Positions 33,393-57,004 of a stretch of 64,000 nucleotides of DNA are shown one piece after another. Where the stretch lies: assembly GCF_008364765.1 (NCBI RefSeq), contig NZ_VTUY01000006.1:53168-117167 (forward strand), given 5' to 3'. Source of the stretch: Bacillus sp. CH30_1T (GTDB taxonomy: Bacteria > Bacillota > Bacilli > Bacillales > Bacillaceae_B). Both the position numbers and the translations under genes were made by a program. Under the pieces are notes generated by a model. The model saw nothing but the letters and a program-made list of their open reading frames with translations. It was not told the origin of the DNA and searched no databases. Within the stretch, counting starts at the first letter, position 1. Each line of letters begins with the position of its first letter.

Positions 33393-33423
33393 TTTTGATT
33401 GTACCAGGTACACTTTCCATCCC

Positions 33424-33467
33424 GGTGCCAGGCACAAAACATCGTTTTTGTGCCTGGCACCTTTTTT
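33424..33467 (+). terminator. Strong hairpin of the GTGCCAGGCAC repeat type
   Basis: GGTGCCAGGCACAAAA / TTTTGTGCCTGGCACC, a 16-bp perfect stem with six T downstream, after degV. A related hairpin follows secA (56963-57004), indicating a dispersed repeat used as a terminator. Confidence 0.85.
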
Positions 33468-46700: not shown

Positions 46701-46722
46701 TTGGGGATCTAATATTTGGGGT

Positions 46723-46810
46723 TCAGCTGCTGAATAAGTGGAGTTATTCACCTGCTGATTATTGACTATAATTCAGCAGGTGAATATCATAGTAATTTCA
46801 GCAGCTAAAC
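46723..46810. repeat. Regular palindrome array, block 1 (4 units, 25-bp period)
   Basis: Thirteen-bp units at 46723, 46748, 46773 and 46798: TTCAGCTGCTGAA, TTCACCTGCTGAT, TTCAGCAGGTGAA, TTCAGCAGCTAAA. Each is separated by exactly 12 bp of AT-rich, unrelated sequence. Central bases run T,T,A,A, so units 1/4 and 2/3 are inverted partners; units 2 and 3 form a 14-bp perfect stem (46746-46759 with 46774-46787) that includes a compensatory G-to-C / C-to-G change. Confidence 0.93.
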
Positions 46811-46903
46811 TGATAATGAATCTGTTTCAATTACACTCTGCTGGCAGGAATATTGAGTACAAATGTCGAATAAAGAAGAATCTAAAATTGAAAGGAAGTT
46901 GCT

Positions 46904-47449
46904 ATGTACCACAAAAGAGAATGGTCTCCAGGATTTATCTACCATATTACCGCCCGGGGAAACCGGAAATATACAATCTTTCGCAATAAAGACGATCGCT
47001 TAAAATACTTGGAGATTGTAGAAGATGCAAAAGAAAAATATCCCTTTATACTTCACTCCTATTGCCTCATGACCAATCACGTTCATCTCCTGATCGAAAC
47101 GAAGAATCATCCCCCAGGTAAAATCATTCACTTTATTCACTACCGCTATGCCCGTTATTTCAATAAGAAGAATGGTTTCAATGGTCACCTTTTTGAGGGG
47201 CGATTTAAGTCAGTCATCATAAAAAATAATAAGCAAATGATTGATACCAGTTGCTACATCCACCTTAATCCGGTACGAGCCGGTATATGTCCGACTCCTG
47301 AGAGTTACCAATGGTCCAGTTATCGTTCTTTTATAACTAATCGCACCAACAAACATGTCCAAACGGAGAAAATACTTTCTTATATGAATAATGGCTCTAA
47401 GAGTCATTATAAATTTTATGTGGAGATCAAGTTACATCAATTTACTTAA
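46904..47449 (+). CDS. REP-associated tyrosine transposase (HUH, Y1_Tnp family)
   Basis: 181 residues. Family motifs are YHITARGNRKYTIFRNKDDRLKYLEIV, SYCLMTNHVHLLIET (the HUH metal-binding pair) and CYIHLNPVRAGI (region of the nucleophilic Tyr in RAYT proteins), then QWSSYRSF. RAYTs are single-domain relatives of IS200/IS605 TnpA that cut and join single-stranded DNA at short palindromes (REPs) flanking their gene. AAGGAAG lies before the ATG. Here the gene is bracketed by two blocks of regularly spaced 13-bp palindromes, the likely substrate. The coding sequence appears intact. Confidence 0.92.
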   Translation: MYHKREWSPGFIYHITARGNRKYTIFRNKDDRLKYLEIVEDAKEKYPFILHSYCLMTNHVHLLIETKNHPPGKIIHFIHYRYARYFNKKNGFNGHLFEGRFKSVIIKNNKQMIDTSCYIHLNPVRAGICPTPESYQWSSYRSFITNRTNKHVQTEKILSYMNNGSKSHYKFYVEIKLHQFT

Positions 47450-47476
47450 CGTTTTAATATGGAGGTCACCAAAAGG

Positions 47477-47639
47477 TTCAGCAGCTGAATAAAAGCTAAT
47501 ATTCAGCAGCTGATTTTCTATAATAATCTAACTGCTAAGTTTTAATTAAAGTTCAGCTGCTGAAAATAAACGAAAATTCAGCAGTTGAATTCTGCCAATT
47601 ATTTAGCTGCTGAAAAAATTCAAAAAATCAGCAGCTGAA
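47477..47639. repeat. Regular palindrome array, block 2 (7 units, 25-bp period)
   Basis: Units at 47477, 47502, 47527, 47552, 47577, 47602 and 47627: TTCAGCAGCTGAA, TTCAGCAGCTGAT, TCTAACTGCTAAG (degenerate), TTCAGCTGCTGAA, TTCAGCAGTTGAA, TTTAGCTGCTGAA, ATCAGCAGCTGAA. Every spacer is exactly 12 bp and AT-rich. Central bases run A,A,T,T,A,T,A, again pairing as inverted partners (1/4, 2/3, 5/6). The sixth unit is the exact reverse complement of the last unit of block 1. Confidence 0.93.
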
Positions 47640-47870: not shown

Positions 47871-47896
47871 GTTTAAGGAGGAATAATTGAGGGAAT
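47871..47896 (+). promoter_or_regulatory. Sigma-B-type promoter of hpf
   Basis: GTTTAA-N14-GGGAAT matches the sigma-B consensus GTTTAA-N12-14-GGGWAW, 45 bp upstream of hpf. In B. subtilis hpf (yvyD) is a general stress gene. Confidence 0.75.
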
Positions 47897-47941
47897 GGAG
47901 AATATATAAACATAGCTTTATTTTTAAAAGGAGGAGTTTAC

Positions 47942-48520
47942 ATGTTGAACTACAACATTCGAGGCGAGAACATTGAGGTAACTCCAGCGATTCGCGAACA
48001 CGTGGAGAAGAAGATTGGCAAGTTAGACCGTTACTTTAATGAAACTCCTGATGCAAATGTACATGTTAATTTAAAAGTGTATCCTGATAAAAATACGAAA
48101 ACTGAAGTGACTATTCCAATGCCGCAATTAGTGTTACGTGCAGAGGAACGCAACACGGATATGTATGCGGCCATTGATCTGATTGTAGATAAATTGGAGC
48201 GTCAAATTCGCAAACATAAAACAAGAGTGAACCGTAAAATGCGTGAGAAGGGCAGCCCGAAGGAGTTTTTCGCGGCTCAGGAAGATCTGAATCACGTTTC
48301 TCCAAATGGTGCAGCTGCGGTTGAACTGGAGGAAGAGGACGATACGGAAGTAGTAAGAACGAAGCAGTTCAATCTTAAGCCTATGGACAGTGAAGAAGCG
48401 ATCCTTCAAATGAACATGCTGGGTCATACATTCTTCATCTTCACGGACGCAGAGACCAACGCAACAAATATTGTGTATAAACGTCGTGACGGGAAGTATG
48501 GCTTGATCGAAACAAACTAA
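47942..48520 (+). CDS. hpf: Long-form ribosome hibernation promoting factor
   Basis: 192 residues. N-terminal HPF/RaiA domain ([48 protein letters not shown]) and C-terminal dimerisation domain ([54 protein letters not shown]). It pairs 70S ribosomes into 100S dimers in stress or stationary phase. GGAGG lies before the ATG; own terminator. Confidence 0.97.
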
Positions 48521-56949: not shown

Positions 56950-56962
56950 TTAAAGAGATGCT

Positions 56963-57004
56963 ACCTGGTACTTATTTTGATAAAATAAGTGCCAGGTACT
57001 TTTC
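56963..57004 (+). terminator. Rho-independent terminator of secA
   Basis: ACCTGGTACTTATTTT-GAT-AAAATAAGTGCCAGGT, a 16-bp stem with one T-G pair and a T-rich tail; related to the GTGCCAGGCAC hairpin after degV. Confidence 0.88.

What the first reader, a model, noticed from the sequence alone, without database searches (positions are those of the whole stretch)
46723..47639. HUH transposase gene bracketed by strictly periodic 13-bp palindrome arrays
Eleven copies of a 13-bp palindrome (consensus TTCAGCWGCTGAA) flank the RAYT-like gene 46904-47449. Start positions are 46723, 46748, 46773, 46798 and 47477, 47502, 47527, 47552, 47577, 47602, 47627, so every step is exactly 25 bp (13-bp repeat, 12-bp spacer). 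RAYT genes are known to be flanked by REP palindromes, but REPs are usually longer and not held in a fixed register. The spacers are AT-rich, mutually unrelated and constant in length, giving a CRISPR-like geometry without CRISPR features. Candidate roles are a transposase-templated repeat array, a polymeric hairpin substrate, or regularly phased binding sites. This is the best candidate in the window for an undescribed system.
Basis: partly seen in the sequence, partly recalled or inferred. Interest (0 to 1): 0.93.

Follow-up and report, generated by a model that had tools for sequence, protein, structure and literature searches.

The report
Transposase with 25-bp phased palindrome arrays
In this bacterium and its close relatives (the Rossellomorea group) a REP-type transposase gene sits between arrays of 13-bp palindromes repeated at exactly 25-bp steps, with spacers that keep their length while their sequence drifts; the enzyme is predicted to recognise and likely spread these modules, which would be a REP-like repeat system with an unusually rigid geometry.

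Summary
In detail: ten recognisable copies and one decayed copy of TTCAGCWGCTGAA stand at exact 25-bp steps on both sides of an intact Y1/HUH transposase gene. The geometry is not local. Of 131 homologous transposase loci from the genus and order, 26 carry 25-bp arrays, and the 26 form one side of one branch of the protein tree. Repeat sequence differs between lineages while the step stays 25; two genomes of another family use exactly 28. In aligned flanks, repeat units are 87% identical, spacers 57%, other flanking DNA 77%. Related repeats are scattered through congeners as doublets and arrays, again in 25-bp steps, often with no transposase beside them. TGAGCC repeats, counted away from the gene, number 24-59 in 5 of 5 genomes whose transposase carries TGAGCC arrays; 27 of 31 others have none. 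Best reading: a REPtron-like system (RAYT plus its REPs) with lineage-specific, register-locked modules, a new variant of a known kind. Not shown: binding, cleavage or mobility. The window's own repeat type is not dispersed in its genome, and single-strand hairpin versus double-strand half-site recognition is unresolved.

The parts
46722..46734 (.). upstream array unit 1 TTCAGCTGCTGAA
46747..46759 (.). upstream array unit 2 TTCACCTGCTGAT
46772..46784 (.). upstream array unit 3 TTCAGCAGGTGAA
46797..46809 (.). upstream array unit 4 TTCAGCAGCTAAA
46844..46873 (+). predicted sigma-H-like promoter of the transposase gene (GCAGGAATA-N12-GTCGAATAA, 0 mismatches to RNAGGAWWW / RNNGAATWW)
   Evidence: consensus as printed in PMC8510167 (passage read); spacer length 11-12 recalled
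46904..47449 (+). RAYT-like Y1/HUH transposase gene, 181 aa, no internal stop; HUH H59-V60-H61, catalytic Tyr predicted Y118
47477..47489 (.). downstream array unit 1 TTCAGCAGCTGAA
47502..47514 (.). downstream array unit 2 TTCAGCAGCTGAT
47527..47539 (.). downstream array unit 3, decayed (TCTAACTGCTAAG, 5 mismatches), recognised by register only
47552..47564 (.). downstream array unit 4 TTCAGCTGCTGAA
47577..47589 (.). downstream array unit 5 TTCAGCAGTTGAA
47602..47614 (.). downstream array unit 6 TTTAGCTGCTGAA
47627..47639 (.). downstream array unit 7 ATCAGCAGCTGAA
45945..46700 (+). neighbour: ABC-2 permease; marks the home site
47942..48520 (+). neighbour: hpf/yfiA ribosome hibernation factor; marks the home site (found beside 20 of the 26 array-bearing transposases)
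33400..33461 (.). related repeats with no transposase, between ORFs that I read as degV and comFA: TGTACCAGGTACA (33400), then the doublet GGTGCCAGGCACA (33424) - 12 bp - TGTGCCTGGCACC (33449) followed by T6; three relatives carry the array-bearing transposase at this site
   Evidence: the gene names degV and comFA are recalled from the sequences, not from a family search

Best explanation
This is a RAYT-type HUH transposase gene flanked on both sides by arrays of its own lineage-specific 13-bp repeat in an exact 25-bp register, and the enzyme likely recognises these repeats and is predicted to have spread the same kind of module, as 25-bp-spaced doublets and arrays, through related genomes. 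Shown from sequence: association, register, lineage-specific repeat type, conserved units with drifting spacers, purifying selection on the gene in relatives, dispersed copies in congeners. Inferred: the repeat is the enzyme's substrate. Two neighbouring units can pair into a 38-nt hairpin (13-bp stem, 12-nt loop), within the 20-40 bp of classical REPs, so on single-stranded (lagging-strand) DNA the 12-nt spacer would be a loop whose length matters and whose sequence does not. Each array would grow by whole 25-nt units, through transposase-mediated insertion or slippage, so the register persists. A predicted sigma-H promoter would place expression at the transition to stationary phase. In the window's own genome this repeat type has not spread, so here the system would be a resident, cis-restricted copy.
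For: Protein: Y1_Tnp; NCBIfam REP_Tyr_transpos at 74.4 bits, just under its cut-off of 80; AlphaFold model pLDDT 93.7 with TnpAREP 4er8 as best PDB match, E 1e-8; HUH and Tyr invariant among 39 aligned proteins; dN/dS 0.06-0.13 in the 9 of 16 pairs where dS was estimable, none of which includes the window gene (its four pairs were saturated). Association: 25-bp score of 20 or more in 26 of 131 loci, 15 or less in the other 105; one branch, support 99/93, 0 of 500 shuffles as low (130 rows, bootstrap not settled). Register: 133 of 217 neighbour distances up to 110 bp are exactly 25. Lineage-specific repeats. Units 2523/2898 identical, spacers 1193/2080, other flank 9861/12875, over 52 non-independent flank pairs. 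Dispersal in register: all 13 short distances among the GTGCC copies of G002 are multiples of 25 (10 exactly 25; 35 of 37 copies typed in, the other two alone on their contigs); TGTACC 34 of 36 exactly 25 in the 50 listed of 71 copies of G002, and 12 of 13 in the 25 listed of 28 of G003, three of those twelve in the array beside its transposase. Type match, copies within 1 kb of the gene removed: TGAGCC 24-59 copies in 5 of 5 genomes against 66, 26, 14, 1 and 27 zeros in 31 others (Mann-Whitney 1e-5); GTGCC p 0.004; related genomes, so not independent. Four doublets fold to -9.9 to -18.1 kcal/mol as ssDNA.
Against: No mobility, binding or cleavage was tested. The window's own repeat is not dispersed in its genome. 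TGTACC copies do not follow the TGTACC-type transposase (p 0.21), and G020 and G017 have 66 and 14 TGAGCC copies with no array-clade transposase found at E 1e-45. Hairpin symmetry is not kept in the TTTAAC/TTTGCC lineage: within-unit halves do not covary (p 0.89-1.00 in seven loci), a single unit does not fold (0 kcal/mol), and neighbouring units are not preferentially inverted (p 0.29; window lineage p 0.48; other gene-flanking arrays are head-to-tail). No GTAG guide: 5 of 350 unit edges. The indel test for whole-unit gain and loss was inconclusive: 3 of 49 array indels and 6 of 150 outside are multiples of 25. Three of the 26 genes have an internal stop (L037, L041, L069).
Confidence: 0.57

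Rival explanations
1. The arrays are phased double-stranded binding sites: a dimeric protein (the transposase itself as autoregulator, or a host protein) binds each 13-bp site by its two half-sites, and neighbouring dimers contact each other at a fixed 25-bp distance. The arrays would regulate the gene or assemble a nucleoprotein structure, not serve as transposition substrate.
For: Half-sites do not covary within units in the window lineage (p 0.10, 0.45, 0.84 for L001, L018, L019) and are of two different kinds in the TTTAAC/TTTGCC lineage; orientation of neighbours is random in these two lineages; spacer length kept, sequence free; AT-rich spacer edges.
Against: Characterised relatives act on single-stranded DNA (PMC6006769 abstract; 4er8 is a REP hairpin complex). 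No HTH domain was called in this protein. The step is 25 in one lineage and 28 in another, neither a whole number of helical turns. Dispersed doublets far from the gene need a spreading agent.
Confidence: 0.25
2. The arrays are an ordinary satellite-like tandem repeat: slippage and unequal crossing-over copy a 25-bp unit, selection keeps the palindromes as transcription terminators or mRNA hairpins, and the transposase is a bystander at a repeat-rich site.
For: Some arrays are nearly identical tandem units (L157: 17 copies of TGTGCCTGGCACC, 16 with the same spacer); a doublet sits where a terminator would (T6 after 33461); at one orthologous intergenic site most of the 28 loci placed keep some hairpin of varied sequence, by eye.
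Against: Arrays follow one transposase clade at the hpf site, the degV-comFA site and elsewhere (20, 3 and 3 of 26) and none of 105 other homologues reaches the 25-bp score of the 26. Units are conserved while spacers have drifted to 57% identity, which recent slippage cannot give. TGAGCC dispersal follows transposase type.
Confidence: 0.13
3. Classical IS200/IS605-like mobile element whose ends are the arrays: gene plus both arrays move as one unit.
For: More than one home site among 26 loci, and 9 of 20 genomes lacking both gene and array at the hpf site.
Against: 20 of 26 loci share the hpf site; one array-clade copy per genome except G002 among the loci used; no target motif was seen. Sites with arrays but no gene fit decay and deletion as well as excision.
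Confidence: 0.05

Closest known systems
REPtron: TnpAREP/RAYT with flanking REPs and BIMEs (Enterobacteria, Pseudomonas)
   Same: Chromosomal Y1 transposase gene flanked by its own palindrome family; transposase lineages with their own repeat types; related copies dispersed in relatives; same fold (4er8).
   Different: 13-bp repeats at a fixed 25-bp step with sequence-free spacers; no GT[AG]G tetranucleotide (5 of 350); in a weak alignment (E 0.07) the GTAG-reading residues of 4er8 are not conserved; the window's own type is not dispersed.
REPIN (REP doublet forming a hairpin; PMC3116915, passages read)
   Same: Doublets with a preferred inter-repeat distance (peaks at 71 and 110 bp in P. fluorescens SBW25), clusters beside RAYT genes, fold as one hairpin.
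   Different: 38-bp doublets with a 12-nt loop; the same step continues through arrays of up to 19 units; neighbour orientation shows no inverted bias in the gene-flanking arrays.
TIRtron/TIRYT and TnpAY1 subclass 2.1 (PMC3733652 passages; PMC6006769 sections 12 and 20)
   Same: RAYT-like proteins with non-GTAG flanking repeats; some homologues of this protein carry PF08299 (Bac_DnaA_C by recall) as subclass 2.1 does.
   Different: TIRs there share GGGGWSAS and are not described as phased arrays in the passages read; PMC6006769 reports no REP-like sequences for subclasses 2.1 and 2.3. The window protein's subclass was not tested.
CRISPR array
   Same: Constant repeat and spacer lengths.
   Different: 13-bp palindromic repeats that differ between units, 12-bp spacers, arrays on both sides of a transposase gene; none of the four neighbouring genes scanned is a Cas gene.

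Membership tests
RAYT / TnpAREP (Y1 HUH) | Y1_Tnp domain with HUH motif and one catalytic Tyr | tested here: met
   PF01797 51.2 bits; H59/H61 and Y118 invariant in 39 aligned proteins; Y118 aligns with residue 115 of 4er8
RAYT / TnpAREP (Y1 HUH) | Closer in fold to TnpAREP than to IS200/IS605 TnpA | tested here: met
   4er8 ranks first, E 1e-8, over 167 columns; IS200-type entries follow at 1e-6 and weaker
RAYT / TnpAREP (Y1 HUH) | NCBIfam NF047646 equivalog cut-off | tested here: not met
   74.4 bits against a cut-off of 80, E 8e-21
REPtron | Gene flanked by its own repeat family | tested here: met
   the 26 loci with arrays are exactly one clade; arrays called on both sides in 20 of 26 and on one side in 6
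REPtron | GT[AG]G tetranucleotide at the foot of the palindrome | tested here: not met
   5 of 350 unit edges
REPtron | Same repeats dispersed in the genome | tested here: inconclusive
   Not met for the window's type (3 of 3 exact copies at the locus); met for TGAGCC type in 5 of 5 genomes; TGTACC does not follow type; TTTAAC type not searched
REPIN | Inverted doublet able to form one hairpin | tested here: inconclusive
   Doublets fold but neighbouring units in gene-flanking arrays are not preferentially inverted
REPIN | Mobilised by the RAYT | not testable with these tools
   needs an experiment
TIRtron / TIRYT | TIRs with GGGGWSAS | tested here: not met
   the units listed are CWG-centred palindromes without that motif; a GGGGWSAS scan of the wider flanks was not made
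IS200/IS605 element | Discrete element ends and near-identical copies in the genome | tested here: not met
   one copy in this genome plus a 47% identical paralogue; ends not tested
CRISPR | Identical repeats, Cas genes | tested here: not met
   units vary; none of the four neighbouring genes scanned is Cas

The most novel reading that the evidence does not exclude
A family of HUH transposases measures and writes DNA: each lineage lays down palindromic modules at its own fixed step (25 nt in the Rossellomorea group, 28 nt in another family of the same order) with spacers constrained in length but free in sequence, giving genome-wide register-locked repeat arrays made by a ruler-like single-strand transposase under sporulation-phase (sigma-H) control.
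Probability: 0.27. Interest if true: 0.86.

Novelty: new variant of a known kind. Interest (0 to 1): 0.68.

Why it matters
GTAG REPs have been described from Proteobacteria, Cyanobacteria, Chloroflexi and the PVC group (PMC3733652, passages read), and how a RAYT selects and spaces its repeats is open. Here is a clade outside those groups with a simple, countable geometry: one gene, one module length, several repeat types that follow the gene's lineage in part, and natural states from unbroken gene through broken gene to bare array at one orthologous site. That makes repeat recognition, spacing and turnover directly testable with short synthetic DNA. Some doublets look like terminators, so they also bear on annotation.

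Tried and rejected
In-place inversion of the gene-array module: rejected; genome-search loci are not strand-oriented, and after re-orientation the order permease-array-gene-array-hpf holds. My note contains the wrong statement; one search corrects it.

Single-unit hairpin as the conserved structure: within-unit covariation is present in the dispersed sets G001-G003 (p 0.001-0.006) and in L029, L034 and L038 (p 0.009-0.018), but not in the window lineage (L001 p 0.10) and not in the TTTAAC/TTTGCC lineage (p 0.89-1.00); pooled z 2.24. The dispersed sets were chosen because listed copies stood 25 bp apart, and the lax calling admits spurious units.

Alternating (inverted) units: no excess in gene-flanking arrays; the pooled other and dispersed arrays lean head-to-tail.

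Whole-unit gain and loss from alignments: inconclusive, low gap costs split gaps; the L001/L018/L019 alignment shows 25-base gaps by eye.

First form of the type-match test (TGAGCC present or absent, Fisher 3e-4; GTGCC p 0.002; TGTACC p 0.10) counted the arrays beside the gene itself and was partly circular; one search repeats it with copies within 1 kb of the gene removed.

Literature searched for this geometry; no description seen in the listings. The library lacks most subscription papers; no bioRxiv.

The score cut of 20 was set after seeing the values (lowest of the 26: 21; highest of the 105: 15). One of 131 loci fell out of the tree by a name clash (130 rows).

Full report
What is there. 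Two arrays of a 13-bp palindrome, TTCAGCWGCTGAA, flank a 546-bp gene. The only three exact copies in the 4.9-Mb genome are here. With one mismatch allowed there are 41 copies against 9 for the reversed pattern; 9 of the 41 (3 exact, 6 with one mismatch) are units of this locus, and none of the other 32 stands 25 bp from another.

Where it comes from. The genomes bear handles, not names. Three of them have transposase loci identical over the gene and 200 bp on each side to records titled Rossellomorea aquimaris (two) and Bacillus sp. BHET2, so I speak of the Rossellomorea group.

The protein. PF01797 Y1_Tnp; REP_Tyr_transpos model just below its cut-off. The model has pLDDT 93.7 and its best solved match is 4er8, a REP-associated tyrosine transposase bound to a REP hairpin. 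HUH (H59, H61) and Y118 are invariant in 39 aligned proteins. In the weak sequence alignment to 4er8 (E 0.07), residues W94, Q95, E100, H101 and R104, named in PMC6006769 as GTAG contacts (section read), fall on F97, E98, S103, V104 and K107. dN/dS is 0.06-0.13 in 9 of 16 pairs; in the other 7, including all four with the window gene, dS was saturated. Three of the 26 array-bearing genes have an internal stop (L037, L041, L069).

How general it is. The protein was searched in 36 genus genomes and 397 order genomes (some genus genomes among them). I analysed 131 distinct loci: 51 of the 53 genus places and 80 from the longer, truncated list. For each I counted 13-mers that recur, direct or inverted, at each distance in 600 bp on either side. 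A 25-bp signal of 20 or more stands in 26 loci (all in the genus, in 25 of 36 genomes); 105 have 15 or less. In a tree of 130 rows the 26 are one side of one branch (support 99/93; 1 change; shuffled mean 24.1; 0 of 500 as low; the bootstrap had not settled). With a stricter unit call, the longest 25-bp chain is 2-17 units in the 26; in the 105 it is 0 in 100 and 2 in 5. In the 26, 133 of 217 neighbour distances up to 110 bp are exactly 25; 48 more are 6 or 19, which I read as a sub-palindrome in near-identical arrays. In six of the 26 no upstream array was called (L029, L030, L034, L039-L041).

Repeat type changes, register does not. Half-sites: TTCAGC (L001, L018, L019), TTCACC/TTCANC (L027, L028), TTTAAC with TTTGCC (L020-L026), TGTACC (L031, L032), TGAGCC (L029, L030, L033, L034, L069), TGTGCC/GGTGCC and mixed (L035-L041). 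The units called have a central CWG; the caller favours that centre. In L131 and L132, two genomes of another family of the order, the palindrome GTACCWGGTAC stands at exactly 28 bp on both sides of the gene (10 of 10 steps within the arrays); they lie near the 26 in the tree with weak support. L124 has 37 and L140 has 48, there with similar spacers.

Length kept, sequence not. Over 52 aligned flank pairs within lineages (non-independent), units are 87.1% identical, spacers 57.4%, the remaining flank 76.6%. 117 distinct spacers have GC 0.33, and information sits mainly at their edges.

Dispersed relatives. GTGCCWGGCAC occurs 1-67 times per genus genome (own 14; reversed control 0-5, and above the count in G023 and G024), TGTACCWGGTACA 0-71 (own 15), TGAGCCWGGCTCA 0-73 (own 0). 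Short distances are 25 or multiples: 13 of 13 for GTGCC in G002, 35 of 36 for TGTACC in the listed part of G002, 13 of 13 in the listed part of G003, where the array beside the transposase gives three. Long arrays on contigs without a Y1_Tnp match exist (G008:C1, 16 exact copies, 19 units; G008:C4, 17 copies). Of 41 distinct arrays called in the dispersed loci that I read, 20 are doublets; those loci were partly chosen for close copies, one holds a transposase remnant, and some calls may be spurious. Outer half-sites are often GGTGCC whatever the inner type. Counting only copies more than 1 kb from an array-clade gene, TGAGCC numbers 59, 24, 56, 40 and 27 in the five genomes with a TGAGCC-type gene, against 66 (G020), 26 (G009), 14 (G017), 1 (G010) and 0 in 27 others (Mann-Whitney 1e-5); GTGCC is higher in its seven genomes (p 0.004) though G010 without that type has 66; TGTACC shows no link (p 0.21). 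The genomes are related, so these p-values are too small.

States of one site. At the hpf site I looked at 20 of 36 genomes (mostly chosen for lacking a known copy there): 3 with an unbroken gene and arrays (G002, G010, G029), 1 with an internal stop (G025), 2 with the gene split between frames (G001, G028), 5 with arrays and no gene found (G005, G006, G027, G031, G032), 9 with neither (letters of ten looked at, one of which did not parse). 20 of the 26 array-bearing genes are beside hpf, 3 between degV and comFA, 3 elsewhere. The window's own degV-comFA gap holds a related doublet without a gene.

Recognition mode. One unit folds weakly (-1.7 kcal/mol for the window type, 0 for TTTAACAGGCAAA); two units fold into a 38-nt hairpin (-9.9 to -18.1 in four examples). 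Within-unit symmetry and inverted order are not kept in the asymmetric lineage. So single-strand hairpin and double-strand half-site reading both stay open; I favour the hairpin reading because of the enzyme family.

Expression. A sigma-H-like promoter (RNAGGAWWW, RNNGAATWW as printed in PMC8510167; spacer 11-12 recalled) with at most 2 mismatches stands within 110 bp of the start in 25 of 26 array-clade genes (control stretch 1 of 26) and 51 of 105 others (control 2 of 105). The best site is not at the usual place in every gene (L033).

What is known. PMC3733652 (passages) lists GTAG REPs from Proteobacteria, Cyanobacteria, Chloroflexi and PVC, and TIRtrons; PMC6006769 (abstract, sections 12 and 20, passages) finds REPs in five TnpAY1 subclasses and none in 2.1 and 2.3; PMC3116915 (passages) defines REPINs with preferred distances; PMC8266576 (passages) treats GTAG and loop recognition. 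Searches for the present geometry found nothing in their listings. Hence: new variant of a known kind.

Noticed in passing
window 46844-46873 and 47877-47905: Perfect sigma-H-like promoters before the transposase gene and before hpf; enriched before RAYT homologues generally (25 of 26 and 51 of 105).
   Followed up: partly
window 33400-33461: Dispersed-type repeats between degV and comFA: hairpin doublet followed by T6, looks like an intrinsic terminator; three relatives carry an array-bearing transposase at this site.
   Followed up: partly
window 56961-56999: CTACCTGGTAC and GTGCCAGGTAC, 28 bp apart, in a hairpin-like stretch followed by T4, just after an ORF end that looks like a SEC-C motif (by eye).
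   Followed up: no
L002 (G000:C12:223356-226868): Second RAYT of the genome, 47% identical, flanked by GGGACGGACCTC / GAGGTCCGTCCC repeats, a different repeat family without 25-bp register.
   Followed up: partly
L131, L132: Transposases of another family with palindromes at an exact 28-bp step on both sides and unlike spacers.
   Followed up: partly
L148 upstream: Long array with alternating 13- and 28-bp steps of GCCTGGCA repeats beside a distant homologue.
   Followed up: no
L197-L226 (one orthologous intergenic site): Hairpin of varied sequence at the same site in most loci placed (by eye); GTGCC doublet in G003 and near relatives, a 25-bp-step array in G008.
   Followed up: partly
L157 (G011:C4): 17 copies of TGTGCCTGGCACC in tandem at 25 bp, 16 with an identical spacer; the only Y1_Tnp match of that genome is on another contig.
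   Followed up: no
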